NCBI RefSeq assembly: GCF_007625155.1
Contig: NZ_VMNK01000015.1
Span: forward strand, 186,001-250,000
DNA from: Denitromonas halophila
GTDB taxonomy: Bacteria > Pseudomonadota > Gammaproteobacteria > Burkholderiales > Rhodocyclaceae
Direction of reading: 5' to 3'
DNA: 64,000 nucleotides
Part shown: piece after piece, positions 27,562 through 51,673 of the stretch
Layout of the letters: each line of letters opens with the position of its first letter
How positions within the stretch are numbered: the first letter of the stretch is position 1
Notes under the pieces: generated by a model
What the model saw: the letters and a program-made list of their open reading frames with translations, nothing else
What the model was told of the DNA's origin: nothing
The model's database searches: none
Program-made: the position numbers and the translations under genes

Positions 27562-27597
27562 TGTTTCACTTTGGAGCACGTGACGTGTTTCGAAGCA
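27562..27597. promoter_or_regulatory. Bipartite enhancer element, copy A (between SoxYZ operon and pedH)
   Basis: TGTTTC-N5-GGAGCA is followed after 9 bases by TTTCGAAGCA. Two other copies with the same parts and spacing lie at 44760 and 48608, and the first dyad alone occurs at 51657. It sits between two divergent sigma-54 promoters, about 110 bases from one and 145 from the other, as expected for an upstream activator site. The rest of the 450-base gap shows only these promoters. Confidence 0.78.
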
Positions 27598-27741
27598 GCC
27601 CGTGCATCTGCGGCTGATCAGATCGCTGGGCGCGATGGGCGGCGCGATACGTGTTCAGGACTCGATGACGGTGCTGATAGCGAGTGTTGGCGCGCGCTTG
27701 AACGGTGATCGCTCTGCCCAGGTGCGACATGTGTCGCTCAA

Positions 27742-27756
27742 TGGCATGCCTCTTGC
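27742..27756 (+). promoter_or_regulatory. Sigma-54 (-24/-12) promoter for pedH
   Basis: The site reads TGGCAT-GCCTC-TTGC, one mismatch from consensus (TGGCAC) with correct spacing and the invariant GG and GC. The expected start is near 27768, about 68 bases before the ATG. Confidence 0.75.
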
Positions 27757-27835
27757 GGAAGACCCCTGCCATGTCCTGGTTTTGCCCGCCTGGGTGAGCA
27801 CAGGGCAGGACAAGAAAACTCAAGGAGGTTACTCA

Positions 27836-29620
27836 ATGGAAGGCAGGAGCAAATCCAACAAGCACTGGGCCGCCGCAGTCTCGCTGATCGCCGCTTCGGT
27901 GATGGGCATGGGCAGCATCCAGGCAAAAGGCGTGAGCGACGCCGACATCGTGCAGGATGCGGCTACCGCGAACGATGTGGTGTCCTTTGGTATGGGCACG
28001 CAGGGGCAGCGCTATTCGGCGCTGGACAAGATCAACACCGAGTCGGTGAAAGATCTGGTGCCGGTGTGGTCGATGTCCTTTGGCGGGGAGAAGCAGCGCG
28101 GGCAGGAATCGCAGCCGCTGATTCACGACGGCGTGATGTTCGTCACCGCCTCCTACAGCCGCATCTTCGCGCTGGATGTGAAGACCGGCAAGAAACTGTG
28201 GAAATACGAGCATCGCCTGCCCGACGGCATCATGCCGTGTTGTGACGTGGTCAACCGCGGCGCCGCACTGTTTGGTGATCTGGTGATCTTCGGCACGCTC
28301 GACGCGCAACTCGTGGCGCTGAACCGCGAAACCGGCAAGGTGGTGTGGAAAGAGAAGGTCGACGACTACCACGCTGGCTACTCGATGACGGCTGCACCGA
28401 TCATCGTCAAGGGCATGGTCATCTCCGGCGTGTCCGGCGGTGAGTTCGGCGTGATCGGCCGTGTCGAGGCGCGCGACGCCCTGACCGGCAAGATGAAGTG
28501 GGTGCGTCCGGTGGTCGAAGGCCACATGGGCTACACCTACGGCGCCGACGGCAAAGCCAAGGACAATGGCGTCTCCGGCACCACCAACGCCACCTGGCCG
28601 GGCGACCTGTGGAAGACCGGCGGCGCAGCCACCTGGGCCGGCGCCACCTATGACCCGGAAACCAACCTGATCTTCGCCGGCACCGGCAACCCGGCCCCGT
28701 GGAACAGCCACCTGCGCCCGGGCGACAACCTGTTCTCGTCCTCGACCGTGGCGATCAACCCGGAAAACGGCAAGATCGTCTGGCACTATCAAACCACGCC
28801 GCACGACGGCTGGGACTACGACGGGGTGAACGAGTTTGTCTCCTTCGACTACGTCAAGGACGGCAAGACCATCAAGGCCGGTGGCAAGGCCGACCGCAAC
28901 GGCTTCTTCTTCGTGCTCGACCGCACCAACGGCAAGCTGATCAACGCTTTCCCGTTCGTGAACAAGATCACCTGGGCCAAGAGCATCGACCTGAAGACCG
29001 GCCGCCCGGTGTATGACGATGCCAACCGCCCCGGCGACCCGACCAAGGGCGCTGACGGCAAGAAGGGCGAAGTGGTCACCTCCGCACCGTCCTTCCTCGG
29101 TGGCAAGAACCAGCAGCAGATCGCCTACAACCCGAAGACCGGCTACTTCTATGTGCCGGCCAACGAGTGGGCGATGGACATCTGGAACGAGCCCGTGTCG
29201 TACAAGAAAGGCGCCGCTTACCTGGGCGCTGGCTTCACCATCAAGGCCTTGAACGAGGACTACATCGGTGCGCTGCGTGCGGTCGATCCGGTCACCGGCA
29301 AGATCGTGTGGGAAAACAAGAACTACGCCCCGCTGTGGGGTGGTGTGCTCACCACCGCCGGCAACCTCGCCTTCTATGGCACGCCTGAGGGCTACCTGAA
29401 GGCGCTGGACGCCACCACCGGCAAGGAAGTGTGGAGCTTCCAGACCGGCTCCGGCGTGGTCGCACCTCCGGTCACCTGGGAGCAGGACGGCGAGCAGTAC
29501 ATCGCCGTGGTCTCCGGCTGGGGTGGCGCGGTGCCGCTGTGGGGCGGTGATGTCGCCAAGCGGGTGAACTTCCTTGAGCAGGGTGGTTCGGTGTGGGTGT
29601 TCAAGCTCCACAAGAGCTGA
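27836..29620 (+). CDS. pedH: PQQ-dependent alcohol dehydrogenase, lanthanide type (PedH/ExaF-like)
   Basis: A 594-residue periplasmic quinoprotein that oxidises primary alcohols to aldehydes with PQQ and passes electrons to a cytochrome c. The signal peptide ends near SIQAKG. An eight-bladed propeller follows with many DxxTGKxxW blade repeats. The adjacent-cysteine disulfide is Cys135-Cys136 (MPCCD). The catalytic Asp327 is in [11 protein letters not shown], and Asp329, two residues on, is the extra metal ligand that marks lanthanide-dependent enzymes (PedH, ExaF, XoxF). The overall sequence resembles P. putida PedH more than XoxF. A strong AAGGAGG precedes the ATG at 27836; the frame is open from 27602. 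It is transcribed alone from a sigma-54-type promoter and ends at a strong terminator. Confidence 0.93.
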
Positions 29621-29643
29621 TCCACCGCGTTTGACCTTCTCCG

Positions 29644-29685
29644 ACGGGGCGGCATGCGCGAAACGCTGCGCATGCCGCCCCGTTT
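29644..29685 (+). terminator. Strong hairpin terminator between pedH and pedF
   Basis: A perfect 16-bp stem (29644-29659 with 29668-29683) and 8-base loop are followed by a short TTT. It lies between the convergent genes and may serve both strands; on the minus strand the T-run is missing. Confidence 0.85.
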
Positions 29686-29709
29686 GCGTGGACGCTGCGA
29701 CGGGGTGCG

Positions 29710-30195
29710 TCATCGGCGCTGGCCCTGAGCGGTTTCGACGAAGCTGCGGATGGCCCAGATCAGCTCTGTCGGAAGAATGTCTTTCCATGGCGGCATGTGT
29801 TCGATGCCGAGTTTGATCTTGCCTTTTTCGACCGTGCTGCGGAAATACACATCTGCGTCGGTCAGGCAGCGGCGCTTGAGATCCGGCTCGGGCACGCGAG
29901 CACAGATACGGCCGATGCGGCGCAGGTCAGGGGCAGGCGAGCGACTCGCGTCGGCATCGACGCCATGGCAGCTGGCGCAACTTTGATTGAAGGCGTCGCG
30001 GCCGATGGCGATCGCGCGCGGGTCGTTTCGATAGGGGTTGGTCTCGCCCTCAGGGTTGGCGAGCGGAGCGAGTGCCGAGCTGTCGACTTCCGGCGCACGC
30101 GGTGTCGTGGCATGTGCGGGTGCCATCAGCGCGCTGGCGCAGAACAGACCGATGGCGGCGAGGCGGCGGGCGTGGTGGGTTGGTGTGGGTGGCAT
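29710..30195 (-). CDS. pedF: Cytochrome c-550 PedF
   Basis: A 161-residue exported cytochrome c. The signal peptide ends near PAHA. The haem motif is CASCH, within AFNQSCASCHG; the axial Met is likely in EHMPPWKDIL. The text NPYRNDPRAIAIGRDAFNQ is characteristic of PedF, the electron acceptor of the periplasmic alcohol dehydrogenases in P. putida. Two further cysteines (CARVPEPDLKRRC) may form a disulfide. AGGAGA precedes the ATG. It is the third gene of the exaA operon, 24 bases after the pentapeptide gene, which fits its role as electron partner. Confidence 0.9.
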   Translation of the reverse strand: MPPTPTHHARRLAAIGLFCASALMAPAHATTPRAPEVDSSALAPLANPEGETNPYRNDPRAIAIGRDAFNQSCASCHGVDADASRSPAPDLRRIGRICARVPEPDLKRRCLTDADVYFRSTVEKGKIKLGIEHMPPWKDILPTELIWAIRSFVETAQGQRR

Positions 30196-30219
30196 GAGAT
30201 GGTCTCCTGTCGGCGTGCG

Positions 30220-30810
30220 CTACCAGCCGGTTGGGCAACCCTGGCAGTTTTCAAAATCAGCGTCGGGGAAGATGGTGAAGCGGGTCACACAGCCCTCCAT
30301 TCGAGTGCCGCGCAGATTGACCGTCGCAAATTTCGCCTCCTGCAAATTGGCCGAGACCAGTTGAGCGCCTGCGAGCCAGGCGAAGTTCAGCCGCGCGAAC
30401 TCCAGGCTGGCCCCCGTCAGATCGGCGCCGGACAAATCGCTGCGCATCAGTCGTGCGGCTTCCAGATCGGCGCCCACCAGTGTGGCGTGGCGGAAATTGG
30501 CGGCCGGTGCGTTGGCTTTTTGCAGGCGTGCGGCGGTGAGGTTGGCCCCCTCGAGGTTGGCGCCGGCGAGGTTGGCGGCACGCAGGTCGGCCCGCGTCAG
30601 ATTGGCGCCGCGCAGGTCGGCACCCGCGAGGTTCTTGCCGAGCAGATCGGCGTGGCGCAGATCGGCGCCGGGGCAACGGGTATAGGGCCAGATTGGGCAA
30701 CCGTTGATGACCAGCGTTTCCACCGCATCGGTCGATGCGGTATCGGCGGCGCTGGCCTGGCTGATCAACGCTGAGGCGATCAGGGCGATGGGCAATGCAG
30801 ATCGGGTCAT
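30220..30810 (-). CDS. Exported pentapeptide-repeat protein
   Basis: A 196-residue periplasmic protein. After a signal peptide (ending QASAA) and a Cys-containing segment (NGCPIWPYTRCPGADLR), about 20 A(D/N)LXX pentapeptides run from residue ~48 to ~185 (LAGADLRGANLTRADLRAAN and so on). They fold into a right-handed quadrilateral beta-helix. A C-terminal CQGC pair follows. The function of such proteins beside PQQ dehydrogenases is not known; a scaffold or assembly role is a guess. It lies between exaA and pedF on the same strand, with gaps of 56 and 24 bases. Confidence 0.85.
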   Translation of the reverse strand: MTRSALPIALIASALISQASAADTASTDAVETLVINGCPIWPYTRCPGADLRHADLLGKNLAGADLRGANLTRADLRAANLAGANLEGANLTAARLQKANAPAANFRHATLVGADLEAARLMRSDLSGADLTGASLEFARLNFAWLAGAQLVSANLQEAKFATVNLRGTRMEGCVTRFTIFPDADFENCQGCPTGW

Positions 30811-30866
30811 GGTGTGGGTTCCGGGGTGCGCCGGGGCAGCCTGTGGGCCGCCCCAGGCTTTTCGCC

Positions 30867-32750
30867 TTAGTTGGCAGCCAGTTGCTTGGGCAGTTTGAAC
30901 ACCCAGAACGAACCGCCTTGGGTGACCTGGCGGGTCAGCTCAGCCAGATCGCCACCCCACAGCGGTACCGCTCCACCGTAGCCGGACTGGATGCCGACAT
31001 ACTGCTCACCATCCATTTCCCAGGTGATCGGTACCGAGACCACACCCGAGCCGGTCTGGAACTTCCACAGTTCGTCACCCGTCTTCGCGTCAAATGCCTT
31101 GACGTAGCCGTCGGAGGTACCTGAGAACATCAGGCCGCCCGCGGTGGTGAGCGTACCGGCCCACAGCGGGAAGGCTTCCTTGTGTTCCCAGACGATCTTG
31201 CCGGTCTTGGGGTCGATGGCGCGGAACACGCCGACATGCTCGTCATGCAGCTTCTTGATGCGGAAGCCCTGGCCGAGATAGGCCGATCCCGCCTTGTAGG
31301 TGAGATGTTCGGTCCAGTAGTCCATCGCCCATTCGTTGGCCGGGATGTAGAACAGGCCGGTGTCCGGGCTGTAGGACATGGGCATCCAGTTGGTGCCACC
31401 GAGGAAGGGCGGAGAGACGAAGACCGAGTCGCCCTTGTCGGCGCCCTCCTTGGGCTGTGGTGGGCGGTTGTTGTTCTCGATCGGCTTGCCAGTTTTCAGG
31501 TCGAAGCCGGTCGCCCAGGTGATGCCATCAACAAACGGCCACGCGCCGATCAGCGACGTGGGCCTGTTGGGGTAGCCCGCCCCTTTGGCCAGCTTCTCGC
31601 GGTCGGTGACGAAGAAGAAGCCGTTGCGGTCGGCGTGTGCCGAGGCCTTGACCTGGTTGCCGGTCTTCGGATCCTTGTACTCGAAGAGCACCACCGAGTT
31701 GTTGCCCGAGAAATCCCAGGCGTCGTTCGGGGTGTGCTGGTAGAAGCCCTTGAGTTCGCCGGTGCTGGCGTCGACATAGGCCTGGCCGGAGGTGAACAGG
31801 CTGTCCCAGTTGCGCGGATCGTCGCCGGGGGCGGTGCGCTTCCAGGTGTTCCACGGCGCCGGGTTGCCGGCACCGATGACCACCATGTTGTTCTCAATGT
31901 CGAAGCTGGCGGTCTGCCAGGGCGCGCCGCCGCCGTGGCTCCAGGCCTCGACCTTGCCGGTGGGCGACTTCGGGTCATTCGGCCAACTCGGCGCCTTGGC
32001 GTCGCCGGTCGGCGTGCTGTCTTTGCCATTGAGGCGGCCCATGTGGCCCTCGACCATCGGTCGTGCCCACACTTCCTCGCCGGTGTCGGGGTCGCGCGCA
32101 AACAGCCAGCCGACCACGCCGAATTCGTCACCCGAGGAGCCGTGCACGAGCAGGACTTTGCCGCTCTTCTGGTCTTTCACCACAAACGGTGCGCCGGTCA
32201 TCGTGTAGCCCACCTTGTGGTCGGCGAACTTCTTCTTCCACACGACTTTGCCGGTGTCCTTGTTGAGCGCCACCATGGCGGCGTCAAGCGTGCCGAAGAA
32301 CACCTTGTCGCCGTAGATGGCCGGACCCCGGTTAACCACGTCGCAACACGGGCGGATGTCATCGGGCAGACGATGCTCGTATTCCCACAGGCGTTTGCCG
32401 CTTTTGGCATCAATGGCGAAGAAGCGCGAGTACGACGCCGTCACATAGATGACGCCTTCGTGCACCAGCGCCTGGGCTTCCTGACCGCGCTGCTTTTCGC
32501 CACCAAAGGAAAAACTCCAGGCCGGGGCCAGCGCGGCGACCGTTTTCGTGTTGATCTGCTTGAGCGGGCTGTGACGCTGAGCCTTGAGGCCCAGACCGTA
32601 GGACAGAACATCGGTGGTCGTCTGGTGGTCGTTCTGGATGTCTTCCCAGCTCACCAGTTTGGCCGCGGTGGCGGGCATGGCAATGCAGGCCGCGATGGCC
32701 AGCACGAGGGGGCGCATTTGAGGCCGAAATGGCAGGGGGCGTGGTGTCAT
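30867..32750 (-). CDS. exaA: PQQ-dependent ethanol dehydrogenase, calcium type (ExaA/PedE-like)
   Basis: A 627-residue periplasmic quinoprotein alcohol dehydrogenase. The signal peptide ends near PATAA. It shows the eight-bladed propeller repeats, the PCCD disulfide pair and the catalytic Asp346 in NDAWDFSGNN. Two residues on is Ser348, not Asp, so the metal site is of the calcium type seen in ExaA and PedE. It is longer than the pedH product because of extra loops (for example around GAPWQTASFDIEN and RTAPGDDPRNWDS). AAGGAACC precedes the ATG at 32750; the frame is open to 33167. The operon continues with a pentapeptide-repeat protein and pedF. The upstream region carries two dyads but no sigma-54 promoter, so it is regulated differently from pedH. 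Confidence 0.94.
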   Translation of the reverse strand: MTPRPLPFRPQMRPLVLAIAACIAMPATAAKLVSWEDIQNDHQTTTDVLSYGLGLKAQRHSPLKQINTKTVAALAPAWSFSFGGEKQRGQEAQALVHEGVIYVTASYSRFFAIDAKSGKRLWEYEHRLPDDIRPCCDVVNRGPAIYGDKVFFGTLDAAMVALNKDTGKVVWKKKFADHKVGYTMTGAPFVVKDQKSGKVLLVHGSSGDEFGVVGWLFARDPDTGEEVWARPMVEGHMGRLNGKDSTPTGDAKAPSWPNDPKSPTGKVEAWSHGGGAPWQTASFDIENNMVVIGAGNPAPWNTWKRTAPGDDPRNWDSLFTSGQAYVDASTGELKGFYQHTPNDAWDFSGNNSVVLFEYKDPKTGNQVKASAHADRNGFFFVTDREKLAKGAGYPNRPTSLIGAWPFVDGITWATGFDLKTGKPIENNNRPPQPKEGADKGDSVFVSPPFLGGTNWMPMSYSPDTGLFYIPANEWAMDYWTEHLTYKAGSAYLGQGFRIKKLHDEHVGVFRAIDPKTGKIVWEHKEAFPLWAGTLTTAGGLMFSGTSDGYVKAFDAKTGDELWKFQTGSGVVSVPITWEMDGEQYVGIQSGYGGAVPLWGGDLAELTRQVTQGGSFWVFKLPKQLAAN

Positions 32751-32859
32751 GGTGGTTCCTTGTCTCCGGGTGTGAATGCTGTTGATGTGTCCGCCGGCTC
32801 GGGTGTTTGCGGCGCAGCGTTGAGTGACGCACTCAGTATCGGGTCCGGTCTTGGCGACG

Positions 32860-32880
32860 GCGCGGGACGCTTTCCCGCGC
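32860..32880. promoter_or_regulatory. Operator dyad 1 between exaA and the sensor kinase gene
   Basis: Perfect 8-bp arms GCGCGGGA and TCCCGCGC flank CGCTT. The core CGGGA-N5-TCCCG recurs 22 bp away. It is a likely binding site for the LuxR-type regulator encoded next door. Confidence 0.7.
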
Positions 32881-32883
32881 GAA

Positions 32884-32900
32884 CCGGGAAATTTTCCCGG
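32884..32900. promoter_or_regulatory. Operator dyad 2 between exaA and the sensor kinase gene
   Basis: CCGGGAAA-T-TTTCCCGG has perfect 8-bp arms. It contains the same CGGGA-N5-TCCCG core as dyad 1, centred 22 bp (two helical turns) away. Confidence 0.7.
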
Positions 32901-32960
32901 CGACCACGCCGGTGCAGGCACGTCGCTTGCGAAGGAGTCATCCAGAAACGGAGGCGATCC

Positions 32961-34259
32961 ATGGACTTGCGACACAAACTCGTGCTGTACCTCGGCGCTG
33001 CGCTGATGGCCTTGCTGGCGGTCGCCTGTACGCTGGTGCTGACGTCCTTGCGCGAGGATGTGGCCGAGGAAATGGCGGCGTCCTCCCATCTGGCGACCCT
33101 GTTGCTGGCGGTAGCCGAGCGCGGTCCGCAGGCACTGGGCGCCATCGGAACACATGAACTGCGCCATCTGGCGGTGGAGCAGGAGCGTCCCGATATGGAG
33201 CGACCGCTCCAGAATGAATCACTGGCGCTGGTCGATGCCATTGCGGCGTGGTTGCCGGGAGACGACGCCGAGCCCGCCGCCGAGCAGCGTTTTTCCCTCG
33301 GCGCCGACACCTTCGTGATCCGTGCGGATCCGCGCAGCGAAATTGACGAGATCGTTCACGACGCTTCGCGTCTGCTCGCCGCGCTGGCGGCCTTCGGCGT
33401 GCTGTCGTTGCTTTCGGTGTGGTGGGCAGTCGGGCGCGCGTTGTCGCCAGTTCGTGATCTGGAGCGTCGTCTCGAAGCGATTGGCGAGGGGTGTTTCAGC
33501 CACGGTGCTGCCAGTTTTGAGCTGCCTGAGTTCGACCGAATCTCGCGGGCGATCGATCAACTCGCGGCGAAGTTGGCCGCGGCGCAGGCGCGCGAAGGCG
33601 ATCTGACGCGCCGTCTGATCACCGTGCAAGAAGAAGAGCGTCGCGATATCGCCCGCGAGCTGCACGACGAACTGGGTCAGTCGCTGGTGGCTATCGCCGC
33701 GTCGGCCAGCTATATCGAGCGCAACGCCATGCGCGCTGAACCGTCGGCGCTGGCCGAGTCTGCCGCCACGATTCGCGGCGAATCCGGTCGGGTTCAGGCC
33801 CATGTGCGTGAGTTGCTCGCCCGCCTCAAGCCCCACGGACTCGAACACATGGGCGTACTCGCTGCCGTGCGTGAGCATGCCCACGGCTGGGCGGCGCGTG
33901 CCGTTGGCATCACGACGACCATCGATCTCCCCGGCGCCTTGCCGCGGCTGTCGGCCCCTGCTGCGCTGGCGCTCTACCGGACCTTGCAGGAAGCCTTGAC
34001 CAATGTGCTTAAACACAGCGGCGCGACGCAGGTGCGTATTGCACTGGAGGCCGTCGGCCAGCATCTGCGCATGTGCGTGATCGACAACGGTCGGGGCCGT
34101 GCCGCGGCGGTCGCGCGAGATGCCGGCAACGGCATCCGCGGCATGCGTGAGCGCGCCGCCATGGTCGGTGGCCTCCTGCGCATTGAAGACGCGCAAGCGG
34201 CTGGCGTGATGATTGCTTGGGAACTCCCACTCGACGCCACAAAAAGGGAGGGCGCATGA
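32961..34259 (+). CDS. HisKA_3 sensor histidine kinase (PedS/ExaD-like context)
   Basis: A 432-residue kinase with membrane segments at about 8-28 and 138-158 and a ~105-residue periplasmic sensor region without a recognised domain. The HisKA_3 box is EERRDIARELHDELGQSL. The ATPase domain shows LQEALTNVLKHSGA, DNGRG and NGIRGMRERAAM. GGAGG precedes the ATG at 32961; the frame is open far upstream but that part is antisense to exaA. It overlaps the regulator gene by 4 bases (ATGA). Lying divergent to the calcium-type dehydrogenase and close to the lanthanide-type one, it is a natural candidate for the metal or alcohol sensor, by analogy with P. putida PedS2. That role is inference. Confidence 0.88.
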   Translation: MDLRHKLVLYLGAALMALLAVACTLVLTSLREDVAEEMAASSHLATLLLAVAERGPQALGAIGTHELRHLAVEQERPDMERPLQNESLALVDAIAAWLPGDDAEPAAEQRFSLGADTFVIRADPRSEIDEIVHDASRLLAALAAFGVLSLLSVWWAVGRALSPVRDLERRLEAIGEGCFSHGAASFELPEFDRISRAIDQLAAKLAAAQAREGDLTRRLITVQEEERRDIARELHDELGQSLVAIAASASYIERNAMRAEPSALAESAATIRGESGRVQAHVRELLARLKPHGLEHMGVLAAVREHAHGWAARAVGITTTIDLPGALPRLSAPAALALYRTLQEALTNVLKHSGATQVRIALEAVGQHLRMCVIDNGRGRAAAVARDAGNGIRGMRERAAMVGGLLRIEDAQAAGVMIAWELPLDATKREGA

Positions 34260-42786: not shown

Positions 42787-44688
42787 TTACGTTGGTTCGT
42801 TGGGCGGGTTGTTTGGTGTGGCATTGTCATCCTGACGCAATTTCCGGTACAGCGTGGTTCGGGTGATGCCGAGCTCTCTTGCTGCGGCCGAAACGTTGCC
42901 GCCGTGGCGTTGCAGGCAGGCGCGGACGAGGCGTTGTTCGCAGCTGCGCAGGTCTTCGGCGGCCGGGGTGTGGGCCGGGGTGTTGGCGATGGCGGTGACG
43001 AGGTCTTCGGGCAGGTGCTTGAGATCGATGACGGTGTCGGTGTCGTCGAGCAGGGCGATCATGACGCGCAGGGCGTTCTTGAGTTGGCGGACGTTGCCGG
43101 GCCAGGGGTAGGCGCGTAGTTGGCTGCGCACGATATCGGCCAGGCGGATGGGGCGGCCGTCGGCGGCGTCGGCGAGCAAGGTGTCGAGGAAGCGGTCGAA
43201 GTCGGCGCGCTCGCGCAAGGCGGGCAGGGTGACGGAGAGGCCGTTGAGCCGAAAGAGCAGGTCGGCACGGAAGGCGCCTTCGGCGACCAGGGTGTGCAGC
43301 GGCCGGTGGCTGGCGCAGACGAGGGCGATGTCGATAGGGGTTTCATCGCTGCTGCCGAGCGGGGTGACGCGTCGGGTTTCGAGCACGCGCAGCAGCACGG
43401 CTTGCAGGGTGAGTGGCATGTCGCCGATTTCGTCGAGAAACAGGGTGCCGCCGTCGGCATCTTGGAGGCGGCCGGGGGCGCCTTTGGCTTTGGCGCCGGT
43501 GAAGGCGCCGGCGGCGTAGCCGAAGAGTTCGGATTCGATCAGCGTGGCGGGAATGGCGGCGCAATTGACGGCGACGAAGGGCGCGTCGCGGCGCGGCCCG
43601 TCGGCGTGGTAGGCGCGGGCAAAGAGTTCTTTGCCGGAGCCGGTTTCGCCCTGGATGAGCAGCGGGATGTCGTGCCCGGCGATGCGTCGGGCGCGGCGGA
43701 TGGCCAGCTGCATGCGCGGGTCGCCGTGGTCGAGCGTGTCGAAGCCGCTTTTTGGCCCGGTGGTTTTATGCAGCACCGTGGGCACCGCCTGGCTGTAATG
43801 CGGGGTCGGTGGCGGCGGGTTGCGCCACTGCAGGCGGGCCGACAGCGCGGGCGGCGGTGAGGTGCGCAGCAGAATCGGGCCGGTGGCACAGGCCTCGACG
43901 AGATGCGGCAGGCGGCGCCAGTCGCGCTGAAAGCAGGTGGTGAAGTCGGGCAGCGCGGTGGGGTCGGCGAGGCCGAGCAGGGCGCGGGCGCGACGGTTGC
44001 AGCCGATCATGCGGCCGGCGTCGTCAAACAGGGCGATGCCTTCGATGGGCGTGCCGAGCATTTCGGCGTGGGGGCTGAAGCGCACGATGACTTTGCCGGT
44101 GTCGAGCGATTCGATCAGCCGGTGTTCGATCATCTCGGCGGTGGAGGTGAGCAGTGCCTGGGCGTGAGGCAGGGTGACGCGGGTGTCGCTCGATAGGTCA
44201 AGGATGCCGAGCATGCCGCCGGTGGGGGCGTGGATGGGCGTGGCGATGCAGGTGAGGAAGCGGTTGCGCTCCAGAAAGTGTTGCTCGCCGCACACGGCAA
44301 TGGTGCGCGATTCATGCGCGACGGTGCCGATGGCATTGGTGCCCATCACCGCTTCGCGCCAGTGGGCGCCGGGGGCGAGGGCGACGCGCTGGGCACGGTC
44401 GACAAAATCGCCGTCGCCCACGGTGCGCAGCACCAACCCGTCACGGTCGGCCAGCAAGACCATGGATGATGACTGGGTGAGCTGACGATGCAGGTATTCC
44501 ATGACCGGCTGGGCAAAGCTCATCAGCCGGGCGTTGGCTTCGAGCCGCTCGGCGAGCAGCGAGCGGCTGGCGATGTCCAGATGCAGCGGATGCTCGGGGC
44601 TGAGGCCGTAGTCGGTCGAGCGCTGCCAGGAGGCGTCGATGTGCGGGGTGTTGGCAGCGGCGGGTTTGGGCGGCGACATGGGTGTCAT
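42787..44688 (-). CDS. AcoR-like sigma-54-dependent activator (GAF-AAA+-Fis)
   Basis: A 633-residue enhancer-binding protein. The N-terminal sensory part has the AcoR opening HIDASWQRS and a GAF domain (MGTNAIGTVAHESRTIAVCG, LTCIATPIHAPTGGMLGILD). A PAS-like segment follows. The AAA+ domain has Walker A GETGSGKE, the sigma-54 contact loop GAFTGAKAKG and Walker B GGTLFLDEIGD. The Fis helix-turn-helix is GNVSAAARELGITRTTLYRKL. The ATG at 44688 is uncertain; starts at 44748 and 44796 are in frame, but the last would overlap the operator. Divergent from the aldehyde dehydrogenase gene, whose promoter is sigma-54-type, it is the obvious activator of that gene. AcoR and AcxR relatives respond to small carbonyls or alcohols. 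Confidence 0.88.
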   Translation of the reverse strand: MTPMSPPKPAAANTPHIDASWQRSTDYGLSPEHPLHLDIASRSLLAERLEANARLMSFAQPVMEYLHRQLTQSSSMVLLADRDGLVLRTVGDGDFVDRAQRVALAPGAHWREAVMGTNAIGTVAHESRTIAVCGEQHFLERNRFLTCIATPIHAPTGGMLGILDLSSDTRVTLPHAQALLTSTAEMIEHRLIESLDTGKVIVRFSPHAEMLGTPIEGIALFDDAGRMIGCNRRARALLGLADPTALPDFTTCFQRDWRRLPHLVEACATGPILLRTSPPPALSARLQWRNPPPPTPHYSQAVPTVLHKTTGPKSGFDTLDHGDPRMQLAIRRARRIAGHDIPLLIQGETGSGKELFARAYHADGPRRDAPFVAVNCAAIPATLIESELFGYAAGAFTGAKAKGAPGRLQDADGGTLFLDEIGDMPLTLQAVLLRVLETRRVTPLGSSDETPIDIALVCASHRPLHTLVAEGAFRADLLFRLNGLSVTLPALRERADFDRFLDTLLADAADGRPIRLADIVRSQLRAYPWPGNVRQLKNALRVMIALLDDTDTVIDLKHLPEDLVTAIANTPAHTPAAEDLRSCEQRLVRACLQRHGGNVSAAARELGITRTTLYRKLRQDDNATPNNPPNEPT

Positions 44689-44759
44689 GTCAGCAGGATT
44701 CGTGCCGCTCGTAGACGGGCGTGAACCGGTGCTTTTCAGGTGTGCCATCTGCCCGGAAG

Positions 44760-44795
44760 CGCTCCATGATGGAACAGGTGTGCTTTTTCGAAGCA
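44760..44795. promoter_or_regulatory. Bipartite enhancer element, copy B (upstream of aldehyde dehydrogenase)
   Basis: CGCTCC-N5-GGAACA is followed after 9 bases by TTTCGAAGCA. Structure and spacing match copies A (27562) and C (48608). It lies about 110-145 bases upstream of the sigma-54 promoter of the aldehyde dehydrogenase gene and next to the start of the AcoR-like gene, so it could also mediate self-control. Confidence 0.8.
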
Positions 44796-44907
44796 TCCCG
44801 TGCGGTGTGCACTTGCCTGCCTGGGCAATGGGCGCGGCGCCGTAGCCGGCGCGTCATGCCTTGTGTGGCGTGGGATTCGATTGGAATTCCGGTTGGTCGG
44901 TGCGGCT

Positions 44908-44922
44908 TGGCACGGTGCCTGC
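44908..44922 (+). promoter_or_regulatory. Sigma-54 (-24/-12) promoter for the aldehyde dehydrogenase gene
   Basis: The site reads TGGCAC-GGTGC-CTGC, one mismatch (CTGC for TTGC) with exact spacing and invariant GG/GC. The expected start near 44934 lies ~50 bases before the ATG. Confidence 0.8.
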
Positions 44923-44982
44923 GATGGTGTTCTGCGACGGACGAGTGTCCGCACCCGAATCGTTCATAACACTGGAGACACC

Positions 44983-46503
<1,521 letters not shown>

Positions 46504-46590
46504 ACAACTTCCAAGCCACACGCGGCCGGGCGCGGATGCTCCCGGTCCGGCCGCACACTGTGTTCTCCCTCCTCGCAGTCAGGAGCTTTT

Positions 46591-46617: not shown

Positions 46618-46648
46618 CTTGTCTGGCGGCGTGTTAAAGGAGTGTTTC

Positions 46649-47023: not shown

Positions 47024-47042
47024 TTCATTCAAGGAAATTTTC

Positions 47043-47363
47043 ATGCGTACAAAACTCTTGCTCGTTGCTGCGCTTGCACTCGGGTGTATTCAGCCGGCCT
47101 TGGCCTCATACGATGTGGTTAAAAAGGCGCGCTGCATCAGTTGCCATGCGCTCGACAAGAAAATGGTGGGCCCGGCCTTCCGCGATATCGCCGCCAAATA
47201 CGCCGGTCAGGCCGATGCACAGACCGCCTTGTTTGCCAAGGTGCGTGAGGGCGGAGCCGGTGTCTGGGGGCAGATCCCGATGACGCCGAATGACGAAGCC
47301 AAGATCAGCGACGACAATTTGAAGGTCGCCATCGACTGGATTCTGGCGGGCGCAGAAAAGTAA
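47043..47363 (+). CDS. Small class I cytochrome c (c-551/c-552 type)
   Basis: A 106-residue protein with a signal peptide (ending ALAS) and one haem motif, CISCH. The axial Met is likely in IPMTPN. Length and the text MVGPAFRDIAAKYAG fit the c-551/c-552 family of soluble periplasmic electron carriers. It follows DUF779 by 19 bases and is probably cotranscribed. In this setting it may carry electrons from the alcohol dehydrogenases to the terminal oxidase. Confidence 0.9.
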   Translation: MRTKLLLVAALALGCIQPALASYDVVKKARCISCHALDKKMVGPAFRDIAAKYAGQADAQTALFAKVREGGAGVWGQIPMTPNDEAKISDDNLKVAIDWILAGAEK

Positions 47364-47489
47364 GTCGCGTATTGTCGTCATGTGGTGGGCCGGCCCGCCG
47401 GACTGATGTGAATCAGAGCCGGCTGGCCGGTCTCTTGCGTGGACGCCGCGGCGCGGCTTTTCTATGCTGAAGCGATAGAGGAGAGCGCG

Positions 47490-48080: not shown

Positions 48081-48081
48081 C

Positions 48082-48492
48082 ATGAAGCCGCGTATCAGCA
48101 TGATCACCCTGGGGGTGCGCGATCTGGCCGCATCCATCCATTTTTACGAAGAAGGCCTGGATTTTCCGCGTATGGAATCGCCGCCGGGGGTTGCGTTCTT
48201 CACGCTCAATGGCACCTGGCTCGGGCTGTATGGGCGCGATGCGCTGGCCGAGGACGCACAGGTGAGCAAGGAGGGCGAAGGCTTTCCCGGTTTTTCGCTG
48301 GCCCACAATCTGGCATCCGAAGCCGAGGTGGACCAAGTGATGGCGCAGGCGCTGGCTGCGGGTGCGACGCTGGCCAAAGAGCCGCAAAAGGTGTTCTGGG
48401 GTGGGTACAGCGGCTACTTCAAGGACCCGGACGGCTATTTGTGGGAGCTGGCCTACAACCCGTTTGCCTGGATTGGTCCGCACGATGATTGA
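48082..48492 (+). CDS. VOC (glyoxalase/bleomycin-resistance fold) protein
   Basis: A 136-residue vicinal-oxygen-chelate protein. Typical parts are ISMITLGVRDLAASIHFYEE, LGLYGRDALAEDA and the C-terminal GGYSGYFKDPDGYLWELAYN with its metal-ligand Glu. The family includes glyoxalases, dioxygenases and resistance proteins; the reaction here is not predictable. GGAGGAAATGAC precedes the ATG, overlapping the end of the acetyltransferase gene, so the two are cotranscribed. Confidence 0.87.
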   Translation: MKPRISMITLGVRDLAASIHFYEEGLDFPRMESPPGVAFFTLNGTWLGLYGRDALAEDAQVSKEGEGFPGFSLAHNLASEAEVDQVMAQALAAGATLAKEPQKVFWGGYSGYFKDPDGYLWELAYNPFAWIGPHDD

Positions 48493-48607
48493 TCGTCGCG
48501 GGTGCCGGGCGCGATGTTTCTAAGCCGCGGAAGCACTTTTTTGATCGTACTTCGGCCATCGTTGCCAGGCGGTTGACGTAGCGGCCACAAGACTTGCACG
48601 GCACACC

Positions 48608-48643
48608 TGTTCCGAAATGGAGCAGATGTGCCGTTTCGATGCA
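48608..48643. promoter_or_regulatory. Bipartite enhancer element, copy C (no obvious promoter)
   Basis: TGTTCC-N5-GGAGCA is followed after 9 bases by TTTCGATGCA, matching copies A and B. It lies in the gap between the ends of two convergent genes, where no sigma-54 site is visible. Confidence 0.7.
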
Positions 48644-48662
48644 CATGTGTATCGCGAGGTGT

Positions 48663-49187
48663 TCAGCGCCTGGCTGGCAGCATCCGCTGCAAAGTGCCGT
48701 CCCGACGTACGGCGTGACGAATGGCGGCAGCCACATGCAGCACGATCAGCGCGATCAGCGTCCAGGCCAGATACTTGTGGGTGGTGCTGAACAGTGTGTT
48801 AAGGGTGTCGTCCGGCCAGCCGGCTTTTGGAATTTCGACGCCGAAGAACTTGAGCGGGTACTTGGTGAAATTGACCGAGGTCAGCCCCATGCTCGGCACC
48901 ACCACCAGCAGCACATACAGCAGGTGATGTGCGGCGTTGGCCAGGCGTGTTTCGATGGTTGTCAGCGCCTGGTTTGGCGGCGGGCGGTGGCTGATGCGCC
49001 AGCCCAGACGCACAAAAACAAGCATCAAGGCCAGCATCCCGAAGGATTTGTGAATGCCGATCGCCCAGCCGCGCTCCGGCCCTTTGGGCAGGTCGGACAT
49101 CCACAGCCCCCAGCCAATCAGCCCGATCACGAGCACCGCCATGAGCCAGTGCAGACCCATGGCGACGCGGCTGTAACGCGGGTTCAT
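48663..49187 (-). CDS. Cytochrome b561
   Basis: A 174-residue inner-membrane protein with four membrane helices. Haem-ligand histidines are visible in MGLHWLMAVL, IHKSFGMLALML, NAAHHLLYVLL and TTHKYLAWTLIAL. Such proteins shuttle electrons between periplasmic carriers and the quinone pool. The start overlaps the beta-propeller stop codon by 4 bases (ATGA), so it is the fourth gene of the 51.4-48.7 kb operon. Here it could link periplasmic quinoprotein electrons to the membrane. Confidence 0.9.
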   Translation of the reverse strand: MNPRYSRVAMGLHWLMAVLVIGLIGWGLWMSDLPKGPERGWAIGIHKSFGMLALMLVFVRLGWRISHRPPPNQALTTIETRLANAAHHLLYVLLVVVPSMGLTSVNFTKYPLKFFGVEIPKAGWPDDTLNTLFSTTHKYLAWTLIALIVLHVAAAIRHAVRRDGTLQRMLPARR

Positions 49188-50134
49188 CGGATCACCACGC
49201 CCCACGGGAAGCTGCCGACCGGGACATCCTTGATCGCCTTGAGGCTGGCGGTGTCGATCACGGTGACGGTGTCGGAGCGGCCGTTGGCCACGTACAGCTT
49301 GGCGCCGTCGGGCGTGATCGCCATGTTCCACGGGCGCTTGCCGACCGGCACGGTACCCACCACGGTGTTGGTCGCGGTGTCGATGGCCATGACGGTGGCG
49401 TCCTTGCCATTGGAGACATACACCCGCTTGCCGTCTGGGCTGATGGCGATGCCGTTGGAGAACTTGCCGGCGGGGATGCTGGCGATCACGGTGTGAGTGG
49501 CCACGTCGATGGCGAACACGGTGTTGCCGATCTCGCAGGCCACGTAGGCGCGGCTGCCGTCGGGCGTAAAGCCGATGCCGCGCGGACGTTTGGCGACCGG
49601 AATCTGCGCAACCTGCTTCATGGCGGCGACGTCAATCACGTCGACTTGTTCGGCGTCTTCGGCGCTGGCGTAGAGCCATTTTCCGTCGGGGCTGAAGACG
49701 GCGTGCTCGGGGTTTTCACCCTTCACCTTGATGTGCGCCAGCGTCTTGCCGGTGACCGCTTCGAGCAGGGCGACGCTGTTGTCCTCTTCAACTGCCGCGG
49801 CCAGCAGCTTGCCGTCGCGAGAGATGTACAGGCCCTCGGGCGAGTCGCCCAGTTTCCAGCTGGCAACAGGTTTTCCGCTGGCCAGGTCGACCACGATGAG
49901 CGATTCGGTCGGCGAGTCGGTCAGATACAGCCGGCTGCCATCGGGCGCGATGGCGATGCCGCGCGGCCGTTCGCTGATCTTCAGCGTGGTGGTGACGGTG
50001 TCGGTGGCGGTGTCGATAACGCTGACCGTGCCCGATTTTTCGTTGGGTACGTAGGCCAGTGGCGCAGCCAGAACGGCGCCGGCAAAGCCATAGAACGTCA
50101 GGGCTAGCGCCGCTTTAAGCGTTGTTTTACGCAT
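49184..50134 (-). CDS. PQQ-dependent catabolism-associated YVTN beta-propeller protein
   Basis: A 316-residue exported protein with a signal peptide (ending VLAA) and seven or so YVTN-type blades. Repeats such as SVIDTATDTV, IAIAPDGSRLYLTDS, AISPDGKRVYVSNG and AITPDGAKLYVANG are plain. NCBI names this family for its co-occurrence with PQQ-dependent alcohol catabolism. No catalytic residues are evident; a scaffold or sensing role is likely. GAGGAGACACCC precedes the ATG at 50134; the frame is open to 50233. It is the third gene of its operon. Confidence 0.9.
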   Translation of the reverse strand: MRKTTLKAALALTFYGFAGAVLAAPLAYVPNEKSGTVSVIDTATDTVTTTLKISERPRGIAIAPDGSRLYLTDSPTESLIVVDLASGKPVASWKLGDSPEGLYISRDGKLLAAAVEEDNSVALLEAVTGKTLAHIKVKGENPEHAVFSPDGKWLYASAEDAEQVDVIDVAAMKQVAQIPVAKRPRGIGFTPDGSRAYVACEIGNTVFAIDVATHTVIASIPAGKFSNGIAISPDGKRVYVSNGKDATVMAIDTATNTVVGTVPVGKRPWNMAITPDGAKLYVANGRSDTVTVIDTASLKAIKDVPVGSFPWGVVIR

Positions 50135-50174
50135 GGGTGTCTCCTCGCCGATGGTCATGCCATCGATTCTGTGG

Positions 50175-51026
50175 TCAGGGGGTTTGGTGAGTGATGCCGT
50201 GCTCTTTGAAGATGCGTGCCAGTGTGCCATCACGCTGGATGTCGATCATGGCCTGCGAGAGTGCCTCGGCCAGCAGCGTGCTGTCCGCCTTGACGGCCAT
50301 GCCCAGCGACCAGCCCTTGATGCGCAGCTCCGGCATCGAGACGGGGCCGACATCAATGTGCCCCGGCGCACCCAGCGCACCCTCGATCTCGGCGCGTGAG
50401 GCCATCACCGCGGCAATGCTGCCGGCCTTGAGCGCGGCGACGGCGTCATTGACGGTCTTGAAGTGCACCACGTTGTCGCGCAGTCGGCCATTGAGCACGC
50501 CGAGCAGGAAGTCGTCAGCGAGGCTGGCGGTTTCGACGCCGATCTTTTCGCGGGTGAACACCTCCAGCGCGGTGGCGGCCGAGCCTTTGACCGGCGGCAC
50601 GCGCGACGGATCGCGCGCGACGGCAAGTGATTCGAGGTGGTAGGGGGCGAAGATGCGCACCTTGTCATTGAGTTCGGCGAGGCGCTGATCCACCGGGACA
50701 TGGAGCATCACGTCGCCGGGGCGGGTGCCCAGGTAGTGACCTTTCCACACCATGTTGCGCAGGTCGTCGTTCATGTCCTCGTCTGCGGTGACTTCAACCA
50801 CATCGGCGGTCAGCCCCATGCGCTTGGCCAGCTCTCGGCCGATGGCAATGTCGACGCCTTTGCCTTTGGCGGAATAGGGCGGAAAGTCGGCATACACGGC
50901 AATGCGCAGGCGGCCCGGCTGCTGAATTTCCAGCGCGTCGGCGGCGGTGGCGTGGCTCAGGCTGGCCGCCAGGCAGGCGACGGCCGCGATCGAGCCAAGT
51001 GCAATACGGCGTAGATTATTCTTCAT
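50175..51026 (-). CDS. Quinoprotein dehydrogenase-associated solute-binding protein (MxaJ-like)
   Basis: A 283-residue periplasmic protein of the extracellular solute-binding family 3 fold. A signal peptide (ending HATA) is followed by LRIAVYADFPPYSAKGKGVDIAIG, the usual first strand, and VMASRAEIEG near the second lobe. NCBI describes a quinoprotein dehydrogenase-associated putative ABC-transporter binding protein; MxaJ of methanol oxidation belongs to the same broad group. MxaJ may help place metal or mature the enzyme rather than import solute, and no permease is here. It overlaps the cytochrome gene by 11 bases. Confidence 0.87.
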   Translation of the reverse strand: MKNNLRRIALGSIAAVACLAASLSHATAADALEIQQPGRLRIAVYADFPPYSAKGKGVDIAIGRELAKRMGLTADVVEVTADEDMNDDLRNMVWKGHYLGTRPGDVMLHVPVDQRLAELNDKVRIFAPYHLESLAVARDPSRVPPVKGSAATALEVFTREKIGVETASLADDFLLGVLNGRLRDNVVHFKTVNDAVAALKAGSIAAVMASRAEIEGALGAPGHIDVGPVSMPELRIKGWSLGMAVKADSTLLAEALSQAMIDIQRDGTLARIFKEHGITHQTP

Positions 51027-51447
51027 GGACAGTCTCCAGCCAGGCACGAATCGACCACATGGCCTCTTGCTGCAGAATACCTTCGAACGGGGGCATATAG
51101 ACCTTGCCGTTGCGGGTGGCGCCGTTGCGAATGCGCTGCATGAAGATCTCATCGCCTTCCATGCCCTCGGGCAGCATGCGAAGGTCAGGCGCGATACCGC
51201 CGGAGATGCCGCCCAGGCCGTGGCAGCGCGCACAGTTCTGGTTGTAGGCGGAGTCGCCAATGCGGATGGCTTCCTTGTCGCCCCGGTAGGGGTTCTCGGG
51301 CAGCCAGTCGGCACCGAGCGACTTCAATGTGCTGGTATCGACGGCTTGCGGTGTCACGTCACCGTGCGCAAGGGCGTGGCCCGAGACGCCGAGGGCGAGG
51401 ATCACCGCAGCGTGGCGCAAGGGACGGAGAGCGGGGAGGTAAGGCAT
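51016..51447 (-). CDS. Cytochrome c-550 of the alcohol-oxidation type
   Basis: A 143-residue exported cytochrome c: signal peptide (ending ALAH), the haem motif CARCH in YNQNCARCHG, and probable axial Met in VYMPPFEGIL. The text ENPYRGDKEAIRIGDSAYNQ parallels PedF at 30 kb, so it is a second, shorter member of that group. It probably accepts electrons from a PQQ dehydrogenase. GAGGAACC precedes the ATG at 51447; the frame is open to 51516. It is the first gene of the operon, behind a perfect sigma-54-type promoter. Confidence 0.9.
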   Translation of the reverse strand: MPYLPALRPLRHAAVILALGVSGHALAHGDVTPQAVDTSTLKSLGADWLPENPYRGDKEAIRIGDSAYNQNCARCHGLGGISGGIAPDLRMLPEGMEGDEIFMQRIRNGATRNGKVYMPPFEGILQQEAMWSIRAWLETVHEE

Positions 51448-51512
51448 GACTGGTTCCTCTATCTTGGTTGAGTTCGATCCACTGCTCGAGGGCAGGGGGT
51501 GAGCTCTCCCCC

Positions 51513-51527
51513 GCAAAGGCTGTGCCA
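51513..51527 (-). promoter_or_regulatory. Sigma-54 (-24/-12) promoter for the cytochrome/propeller operon
   Basis: On the minus strand it reads TGGCAC-AGCCT-TTGC, a perfect consensus match. The expected start is near 51501, ~54 bases before the cytochrome ATG. Confidence 0.85.
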
Positions 51528-51611
51528 GTTGCTTTCACGGCGCGTTCATCCCGCTCGGAAGCGGCTGATATCGCCCAAGCGACGGATGGTCAGCCATTTG
51601 TCAGTGTTCGC

Positions 51612-51626
51612 TGGCACACTAGTTGC
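51612..51626 (+). promoter_or_regulatory. Sigma-54 (-24/-12) promoter for the second AcoR-like gene
   Basis: The site reads TGGCAC-ACTAG-TTGC, a perfect consensus match, ~85 bases from the divergent promoter. The expected start near 51638 lies ~107 bases before the ATG. Confidence 0.82.
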
Positions 51627-51656
51627 GTGATAGGTGACACAGGGATCTGCCCAGCT

Positions 51657-51673
51657 TGCTCCAGCTTGGAGCA
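51657..51673. promoter_or_regulatory. Enhancer dyad, copy D (perfect palindrome)
   Basis: TGCTCC-AGCTT-GGAGCA has perfect arms and the same 5-base spacer as copies A-C, but the following TTTCGAWGCA block is absent. It lies ~130 bases upstream of the minus-strand promoter and just downstream of the plus-strand one, so it may activate one and restrain the other. Confidence 0.72.

What the first reader, a model, noticed from the sequence alone, without database searches (positions are those of the whole stretch)
27562..51673. One bipartite DNA element recurs at three distant loci of alcohol oxidation
TGYTYC-N5-GGARCA occurs at 27562, 44760, 48608 and 51657. In the first three the second block TTTCGAWGCA follows at exactly 9 bases. 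Three of the four sites lie near sigma-54 promoters of pedH and the SoxYZ operon, the aldehyde dehydrogenase, and the cytochrome/propeller operon. Exact spacing repeated across 24 kb is hard to explain by chance. Two AcoR-like activators in the window have nearly the same recognition helix (AARELGITRTTLYRKL and AARRLGISRNTLYRKL), so they may share this site. This would define a single regulon for the whole quinoprotein system.
Basis: partly seen in the sequence, partly recalled or inferred. Interest (0 to 1): 0.9.

Follow-up and report, generated by a model that had tools for sequence, protein, structure and literature searches.

The report
AcoR enhancer regulon for alcohol oxidation
The repeated DNA element is a real set of switches, most likely bound by one activator protein that turns on a cluster of alcohol- and aldehyde-oxidising genes, and one of the switches sits, unusually, where two gene groups end rather than where any gene begins.

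Summary
A matrix of 29 sites ranks these four places first in the 4.39-Mb genome (E 2e-6 to 1.6e-5; next place outside the cluster 0.097). Among 101 genomes, hits at E<=0.01 lie beside the same genes or an associated ABC operon; the one far hit precedes a relocated ALDH. Sites 1, 2 and 4 flank sigma-54-like promoters of the PQQ-ADH/SoxYZ relay, ExaC, the SBP/propeller/cytochrome b operon and the activator. AcoR2 is the likely binder: it co-occurs with the element, and AcoR1 has lost its HTH and GAFTGA in four genera. The second PQQ dehydrogenase and the pqqE loci are not in the regulon. The surprise is site 3 (48608): a well-kept pair past the 3' ends of convergent operons, without a promoter, fused in some lineages to a covarying hairpin. 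I read it as a downstream enhancer, as reported for rocG; roadblock/terminator is the main rival. Binding is inferred, not shown.

The parts
27562..27597 (+). Site 1: tandem dyads (27562-27578 and 27581-27597), between divergent soxYZ-like and PQQ-ADH operons
   Evidence: upstream of the PQQ-ADH in 11 genomes in total (window plus 10 relatives), SoxYZ recognised on the other side in 10 of 11 (not G074)
27438..27454 (-). sigma-54-like promoter CTGGCACGCCGCTTGCG towards the SoxYZ-like carrier operon
   Evidence: similar in relatives
27741..27757 (+). sigma-54-like promoter ATGGCATGCCTCTTGCG towards the PQQ-ADH
26620..27384 (-). quinoprotein dehydrogenase-associated SoxYZ-like carrier
   Evidence: TIGR04557
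25685..26623 (-). quinoprotein relay system zinc metallohydrolase 1
   Evidence: TIGR04558
27836..29620 (+).
   Evidence: TIGR03075; sequence
44760..44795 (+). Site 2: tandem dyads (44760-44776 and 44779-44795), between divergent acoR1 and ALDH operon
   Evidence: 9 genomes in total (window plus 8 relatives); acoR1 not recognised in G045, cytochrome c in place of ALDH in G025
44907..44923 (+). sigma-54-like promoter TTGGCACGGTGCCTGCG towards ALDH
44983..46503 (+). acetaldehyde dehydrogenase ExaC (then DUF779, cytochrome c, GNAT and glyoxalase, all + strand)
   Evidence: NF050026; Pfam
42787..44679 (-). AcoR1: GAF - AAA+ (GAFTGA) - Fis HTH activator; start codon chosen by alignment
48608..48643 (+). 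Site 3: tandem dyads (48608-48624 and 48627-48643) in the convergent gap between glyoxalase (+, ends 48492) and cytochrome b561 (-, ends 48663); no sigma-54-like promoter found
48598..48634 (.). Extended hairpin centred on the first dyad of site 3
   Evidence: folds with z -4.9 and -3.7 on the two strands; covariation in the class
48663..51314 (-). Operon SBP (50175-51314), beta-propeller (49184-50233), cytochrome b561 (48663-49331)
51657..51692 (+). Site 4: tandem dyads (51657-51673 and 51676-51692), between divergent SBP operon and acoR2
   Evidence: 12 genomes in total (window plus 11 relatives)
51512..51528 (-). sigma-54-like promoter CTGGCACAGCCTTTGCG towards the SBP operon
51611..51627 (+). 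sigma-54-like promoter CTGGCACACTAGTTGCG towards acoR2; site 4 begins 29 bp downstream of it
51745..53757 (+). AcoR2: GAF - AAA+ (GAFTGA) - Fis HTH activator, proposed binder of all four sites; start codon chosen by the ribosome-binding-like GGAGGAG

Best explanation
The element is the operator of a GAF-AAA+-Fis bacterial enhancer-binding protein of the AcoR type, most probably AcoR2. Each copy is two tandem 17-bp dyads in 19-bp register, room for two HTH dimers of the oligomer. Sites 1, 2 and 4 are ordinary sigma-54 enhancers: an alcohol- or aldehyde-derived ligand (inferred) relieves the GAF domain, and DNA looping brings the AAA+ ring to E-sigma54 at the PQQ-ADH, SoxYZ/metallohydrolase relay, ExaC and SBP/propeller/cytochrome b promoters. 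Site 4 also lies just downstream of acoR2's own sigma-54-like promoter at a nearly fixed distance, so AcoR2 very likely regulates itself. Site 3 has no promoter of its own. I think it most likely serves as a downstream enhancer reaching the convergent operons' promoters from behind their 3' ends (about 2.9 and 3.7 kb), as reported for rocG of Bacillus subtilis. In some lineages it has also become the stem of a terminator-like hairpin. Shown here: sequence, genome-wide specificity, conservation, co-occurrence with AcoR2, lack of a sigma-54-like promoter at site 3 above background, covariation of the hairpin. Inferred: binding, ligand, looping, function of site 3.
For: Matrix of 29 sites: the four window sites are the top four of the genome, next place outside the cluster E 0.097 (150 of 1471 first-look candidates were scored). 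In 101 genomes (own included; stricter filters) hits at E<=0.01 fall at the four junctions or beside an ABC-transporter operon (G053 copy 3a, G018 L078), except G008 at 4.14 Mb, 150 bp upstream of an ALDH that moved out of the cluster. Element (<=1 mismatch) in 20 of 150 genomes, close AcoR2 in 24 of 150, both in 17 (Fisher p 3e-14). A tandem element (<=3 mismatches) lies upstream of AcoR2 in 20 of 24 and of 0 of 5 more distant AcoR-like genes (L188-L192; L187 is cut at a contig end). AcoR1 lost HTH and GAFTGA in G053, G075, G066 and G035, which keep elements. In 26 AcoR-like loci of named records the dyad (<=1 mismatch) is 15-fold denser in the 700 bp before the gene than elsewhere, hits in 6 of 26, e.g. 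between AcoR and a divergent ALDH in Paraburkholderia and Bacillus. sigma-54 score >=20 within 300 bp of all 32 sites of classes 1, 2, 4 and of 2 of 13 of class 3, at or below background. Held-out genomes show site 3 again at the end of the SBP operon.
Against: No binding, expression or transcript data. AcoR1 keeps an almost identical HTH in this genus and could bind too. Three element-bearing genomes lack a close AcoR2 (G074, G140, G145). Of the 24 AcoR2 genomes, G035, G039, G046 and G007 have no pair at <=3 mismatches before AcoR2, though G035 and G046 have weaker matrix hits there. G018 and G025 have no dyad after the SBP operon. The downstream-enhancer role of site 3 rests on position, conservation and precedent only; sites 2 and 4 already provide near enhancers for both operons, so a third would be redundant. 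Site 3 has no recognised convergent partner in G058 and L083 and an uncertain one in G070. The hairpin is strong in several genomes but weak or absent in G066, G070 and G085.
Confidence: 0.8

Rival explanations
1. Site 3 is a roadblock or regulated terminator: AcoR2 bound between convergent operons, helped by the hairpin, stops RNA polymerases running into the other operon.
For: A convergent partner is recognised in 16 of the 19 genomes with the pair. Extended stem with covariation: 8 flank pairs, 83% paired against 28-47% in slid controls, 13 double-changed cells; no shuffle of 500 reaches these two or the covariation score, though 13 of 500 reach the number of pairs with a double change. Eight folds of five class-3 sites, chosen for visible stems, have z -3.7 to -9.0. 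T-rich tails in G041 and G075. Roadblock termination is reviewed in PMC10310618 (passages).
Against: Hairpin weak or absent in several lineages that keep the dyads; T tracts weak in most; G058 and L083 have no recognised convergent gene; the same review notes that most DNA-binding proteins are poor roadblocks.
Confidence: 0.3
2. AcoR1, or AcoR1-AcoR2 mixed oligomers, are the real binders of all sites.
For: Very similar recognition helices; acoR1 sits beside site 2; degenerate AcoR1 retained next to ALDH in G053, G075, G066 and G035 suggests a partner role.
Against: Those four homologues have no HTH and no GAFTGA yet elements persist; AcoR2 keeps FTGA and the HTH in all 11 aligned.
Confidence: 0.2
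3. Site 3 is the enhancer of an unseen sigma-54 promoter for a small RNA, an antisense transcript or a lost downstream gene.
For: In G002 and G008 a single dyad after cytochrome b stands about 110 bp upstream of a co-directional sigma-54-like promoter, that of ALDH in G002; copy 3a of G053 precedes an ABC-transporter operon, with a weak sigma-54-like match (19.5) between.
Against: No sigma-54 score above 20.0 in 13 class-3 regions, background being 0.26 per region at >=20; the gap is about 30 bp in G062.
Confidence: 0.12
4. The repeats are chance or a repeat family without function.
For: The single degenerate 17-mer is not enriched in the window.
Against: Genome-wide specificity and conservation across genera.
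Confidence: 0.01

Closest known systems
AcoR (acetoin operon activator of Bacillus and others) and its operator
   Same: GAF-AAA+-Fis HTH activator of sigma-54 promoters (a GAF domain in B. thuringiensis AcoR: PMC4428206, passages). The B. thuringiensis AcoR site quoted in PMC12648084 (passages) has a central GAGACA-GA-TGTCTC, the same inner-half geometry as GGARCA-NN-TGYTCC here.
   Different: Half-site letters differ (GGARCA against GAGACA); targets are PQQ alcohol oxidation and its relay instead of acetoin dehydrogenase.
AdhR of Clostridium beijerinckii
   Same: GAF-containing sigma-54 activator of alcohol dehydrogenase genes with several UAS copies (PMC7017808, passages).
   Different: Alcohol synthesis, three UAS copies, other phylum.
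Fis-HTH enhancer sites with TGT and ACA 10-12 bp apart (15 EBP groups, PMC6615313, passages)
   Same: TGY-N11-RCA dyads upstream of sigma-54 promoters.
   Different: Here in strict tandem pairs, and one copy has no promoter.
rocG downstream enhancer (B. subtilis)
   Same: sigma-54 activator site located downstream of the gene it controls (cited in PMC12648084, passages; primary paper not held).
   Different: There, as I recall, the element also serves as an upstream enhancer of the next operon; site 3 has no downstream promoter and lies between two convergent operons.
ped cluster of Pseudomonas putida
   Same: PQQ alcohol dehydrogenases with associated genes (search listing).
   Different: A passage search of PMC12997753 for sigma-54 and AcoR found only a CbrB table row; control by PedS2/PedR2 is in the abstract start of PMC6115532 (listing).

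Membership tests
AcoR-type sigma-54 enhancer-binding protein | GAF sensor, AAA+ with GAFTGA, Fis-type HTH in one protein | tested here: met
   Pfam; GAFTGA and HTH read. No NCBIfam cut-off was reached among the 25 best shown for either protein, so no finer family name is claimed.
AcoR-type sigma-54 enhancer-binding protein | Responds to acetoin and activates acetoin dehydrogenase | not testable with these tools
   Neighbouring genes are alcohol/aldehyde oxidation, so the ligand probably differs.
sigma-54 upstream activating sequence (sites 1, 2, 4) | Dyad within about 300 bp of a -24/-12 promoter | tested here: met
   Classes 1, 2, 4: sigma-54 score >=20 within 300 bp in 32 of 32 sites
sigma-54 upstream activating sequence (site 3) | Dyad within about 300 bp of a -24/-12 promoter | tested here: not met
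   Class 3: 2 of 13 at 20.0, none above; background 0.26 per 636 bp at >=20
sigma-54 downstream activating sequence (rocG-like) | Activator site beyond the gene that is needed for its transcription | not testable with these tools
   Position fits; need cannot be tested
Intrinsic bidirectional terminator | G+C-rich hairpin between convergent genes with T tracts | tested here: inconclusive
   Hairpin and covariation in part of the lineages; T tract good only in some; not called as a terminator by the scan

The most novel reading that the evidence does not exclude
AcoR2 bound at the start (site 4) and at the end (site 3) of the same operon joins promoter and terminator into a gene loop, and site 3 is a hub shared by two convergent sigma-54 operons. 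This would be an activator-made bacterial gene loop whose anchor at the 3' end doubles as a terminator hairpin.
Probability: 0.12. Interest if true: 0.85.

Novelty: new variant of a known kind. Interest (0 to 1): 0.5.

Why it matters
It gives a sharply defined sigma-54 regulon for periplasmic PQQ alcohol oxidation, with its binding matrix and probable activator. No paper linking AcoR, sigma-54 and PQQ alcohol dehydrogenase was found in the searches made here. It also gives a conserved natural case of an enhancer-type site past the 3' ends of convergent operons. That makes action from behind, roadblocking and gene looping by sigma-54 activators testable with one small deletion.

Tried and rejected
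Rejected: an independent second block (it is the right half of dyad two). An RNA element of the ANTAR kind (recalled) for all sites was rejected because site 1 lies upstream of both divergent promoters. A sigma-70 start at site 3 was only weakly tested (one search lists none there). A fixed enhancer distance for site 3 was rejected because it stays at the operon end when propeller and cytochrome b are missing (G053, G066, G075). The first tandem pattern was out of register by one base and was replaced. A weak hit before the second PQQ dehydrogenase (33186, 13.1, the maximum seen in 3000 random pieces) is letter for letter the same in G000, G004, G006 and G009 and similar in G001 and G003, but it reads as conserved coding sequence of the + strand kinase gene (coding judged by eye from the alignment). 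The candidate fifth site in the own genome (C32:191611, L024/L210) was looked at: no sigma-54-like promoter listed near it, left open. An unexplained hit of 16.7 in L089 was not followed. The paper search for AcoR and GGAACA was noise, apart from PMC12648084. No structure prediction was run; it would not bear on the site.

Rows dropped or set aside: A3 holds 12 of the 13 class-3 sites (G053a left out because it precedes an operon). A4 holds 29 of the 46 collected sites; near-duplicates and weaker ones were left out. The upstream test used 26 of the 80 loci, those with near full-length matches. The PWM used 45 sites (the G018 site L078:7953 left out). One search folded 5 of 13 class-3 sites, picked for their stems. 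G046 was not assessable for site 3 because no SBP operon was recognised.

After the one check asked for, I corrected these points: the AcoR1 loss is in four genera, not three; distant AcoR-like controls are 5, not 6; the weak hit near the second PQQ dehydrogenase and the 12 weaker pattern matches are now told; site 3's lead in consensus match is smaller in held-out genomes; the G018 site is annotated.


Full report
What was claimed and what is there. The first block is exact at 27562, 48608 and 51657 and one base off at 44760. The second block is exact at 27588, 44786 and 48634, always 9 bases on. Laid in register, the second block is the right half of another copy of the first: dyads start at 27562/27581, 44760/44779, 48608/48627 and 51657/51676. 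In relatives both dyads can fit fully, as in G053. The element is therefore a tandem pair of 17-bp dyads, 19 bp apart.

Chance. The single 17-mer at up to two mismatches is no more common in the window than in shuffles (33 against 31.4). The 36-bp pair is another matter. In the 4.39-Mb genome the four sites are the four best matches. Outside them there are 3 places with two mismatches and 9 with three; the reversed control gives 5 at up to three. A sequence model from 29 sites (it includes the four) ranks them first at E 2.0e-6 to 1.6e-5. The only further matches listed under E 0.6 are a shifted match at site 3 (0.011), an unrelated place (0.097) and the reverse of site 4 (0.545); 150 of 1471 first-look candidates were scored.

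Relatives. At up to one mismatch 20 of 150 genomes (the window's own included) carry the pair; control matches are 2 in all. Gene maps by tblastn with window proteins place the sites at four kinds of junction: before the PQQ-ADH (class 1, 11 sites; SoxYZ recognised opposite in 10), acoR1/ALDH (class 2, 9; acoR1 not recognised in G045, cytochrome c in place of ALDH in G025), the end of the SBP-propeller-cytochrome b operon (class 3, 13 including two in G053), and SBP/acoR2 (class 4, 12). A matrix from these 45 sites was tried on nine loci from genomes not used for it. Class-4 hits of 14 or more came in 8 of 9 (G046 weakest at 15.9; G039 only 10.3), and class-3 hits in G035, G039, G062, G070 and G085 with scores 23.7 to 37.8. 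Random 300-bp pieces of other loci never exceeded 13.1 in 3000. L083, a named MAG contig, has both (43.9 and 38.2). With the model, hits at E<=0.01 in 101 genomes (stricter filters, so weak matches are lost) lie at these junctions or beside an ABC-transporter operon. The ABC operon is next to copy 3a of G053 and the G018 site L078:7953. The one far hit, in G008, lies 150 bp upstream of an ALDH gene 2.2 Mb from the cluster.

Which protein. Close AcoR2 homologues (E<=1e-200) are in 24 of 150 genomes; 17 of these are among the 20 with the element (Fisher p 3e-14). The 7 others all have a matrix hit of at least 14 near AcoR2 or at class 3. The exceptions on the other side are G074, G140 and G145. 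A pair at up to three mismatches precedes AcoR2 in 20 of 24 (not in G039, G035, G046, G007) and none of 5 more distant AcoR-like genes. The recognition helix GISRNTLYRKL is near constant in AcoR2, and GITRTTLYRKL in intact AcoR1. In G053, G075, G066 and G035 the AcoR1 homologue lacks GAFTGA and stops before the HTH; that is 4 of 12 AcoR1 homologues looked at. All four genomes keep elements. Hence AcoR2 is enough. In named records, 26 loci with full-length AcoR-like proteins have the dyad 15 times more often in the 700 bp before the gene than elsewhere (8 in 17.2 kb against 15 in 484.8 kb; hits in 6 of 26 loci, one of them L083). In Paraburkholderia and Bacillus it stands between AcoR and a divergent ALDH. 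I take this as the ancestral arrangement of an aldehyde-responsive AcoR (inference).

Regulon. Members by sites 1, 2 and 4: PQQ-ADH, SoxYZ-like carrier and zinc metallohydrolase 1 of the quinoprotein relay, acetaldehyde dehydrogenase ExaC with the genes behind it, the SBP/propeller/cytochrome b operon, and acoR2. sigma-54-like sequences of score 20 or more lie within 300 bp of all 32 sites of classes 1, 2 and 4. The two loci over the PqqE cut-off on contigs C11 and C31 have no element at up to three mismatches near them. Before the second PQQ dehydrogenase (30867-33167) only a weak hit stands (33186, 13.1). It is kept in relatives but lies in what reads as coding sequence of the opposite-strand kinase gene, so I do not count it. 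"The whole quinoprotein system" is therefore too wide.

acoR2's own promoter. A sigma-54-like promoter points at acoR2 from 28-33 bp before the element in 14 of 15 genomes where both are seen (the fifteenth, G041, 21 bp; G039 counted with its degenerate element). Gaps were computed by hand; the 9 other AcoR2 genomes lack one or the other. The element would then cover about +20 to +55. A fixed distance next to the start fits autoregulation, repression more easily than activation (inference).

Site 3. It lies between the stop of a + strand glyoxalase gene (48492) and the end of cytochrome b561 on the - strand (48663). In six aligned genomes of the genus it is the block that stays while the rest of the gap changes. 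Its first dyad is on average the closest to consensus (11.92 of 12 against 11.18, 10.22 and 11.00 for classes 1, 2, 4). These sites were picked by a mismatch limit; in held-out sites the lead is small (10.71 against 10.00, 10.20 and 10.11). Near it sigma-54 scores reach 20.0 in 2 of 13 and never more; background would give about 3. A pair follows the SBP operon in 19 genomes: G000, G001, G003, G004, G006, G007, G009, G035, G039, G041, G045, G053, G058, G062, G066, G070, G075, G085 and L083. G044 has a single full dyad there. G002 and G008 have a single dyad about 110 bp upstream of a co-directional sigma-54-like promoter. G018 and G025 have none. That is 19 of 24 with a pair, 3 with one dyad, 2 without; G046 could not be judged. 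A convergent gene is recognised on the other side in 16 of the 19; not in G058 and L083, uncertain in G070.

The hairpin. In 12 class-3 sequences (11 distinct) aligned without gaps, the eight pairs flanking the dyad core are 83% paired, with 13 double-changed cells. No shuffle of 500 reaches these or the covariation score; 13 of 500 reach the number of pairs with a double change, 1 of 500 the number of pair types. Slid controls are 28-47% paired. The sequences are related, so these are not probabilities. Eight folds of five class-3 sites, chosen for their stems, have z from -3.7 to -9.0; window sites 1, 2 and 4 have -2.2, 0.7 and -1.2. Of six held-out sites G035 has a long stem (z -4.2), G039 and G062 are intermediate (-2.8), G070 is weak (-1.9), G066 and G085 have none (simple shuffles). 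The dyads are thus the constant and the hairpin the variable part.

How it may work. A sigma-54 activator site beyond the gene it serves is known for rocG (cited in PMC12648084, passages; primary paper not held). I judge a downstream enhancer for the convergent operons the likeliest reading of site 3 (about 0.45), roadblock or terminator next (about 0.3), and an unseen promoter, a gene loop or a sink for activator the rest. None of this has been tested at the bench.

Known kin. The tandem geometry matches the AcoR site of B. thuringiensis as quoted in PMC12648084, and operators with TGT and ACA 10-12 bp apart are common in Fis-HTH activators (PMC6615313, passages). The operator is therefore a member of a known kind; the promoter-less copy at operon ends, partly fused to a hairpin, is the variant. 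In the library searched I saw no report of this regulon; subscription journals are mostly not held. The contig length of G053 (5,257,030) is one that I recall for Azoarcus sp. CIB, which would make the family Rhodocyclaceae; this is recall, not a result.

Noticed in passing
42787-44679 (-), and L074:4914-6542, L076:12535-14169, L082:2949-4508, L200 from 8400: AcoR1 homologues in G053, G075, G066 and G035 have lost GAFTGA and the whole C-terminal HTH but stay next to ALDH: possibly a partner subunit or anti-activator of AcoR2.
   Followed up: partly
51611-51692: sigma-54-like promoter of acoR2 with the operator 28-33 bp downstream in 14 of 15 genomes where both were seen: looks like fixed-geometry autoregulation.
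   Followed up: partly
44692-44708 (-): A conserved sigma-54-like sequence (GCGGCACGAATCCTGCT, score 19.5) only about a dozen bases before the likely acoR1 start, implying a near-leaderless transcript if real.
   Followed up: no
L024:1501-1536 (own genome C32:191611-191646): A weaker tandem element (matrix 23.4) at the start of an ORF that looks like an MscS-type channel (recalled, not searched); no sigma-54-like promoter listed nearby.
   Followed up: partly
L074:8540-8575 and 8699-15204; L078:7953-7988: In G053 a copy with two full dyads precedes an ABC-transporter operon with a YncE-like propeller; in G018 a copy stands before a similar ABC operon.
   Followed up: partly
own genome C11:12154-13197 and C31:649081-650109: Two loci score above the PqqE cut-off, which suggests two PQQ synthesis loci.
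   Followed up: no
32915-32931 (+): A sigma-54-like sequence (score 21) between the second PQQ dehydrogenase and a + strand kinase gene, with similar ones at that place in G001, G003 and G006; no element beside it.
   Followed up: no
27836-29620: The PQQ-ADH carries WDYDG, which I recall as the extra-aspartate signature of lanthanide-type enzymes (PedH/ExaF/XoxF).
   Followed up: no
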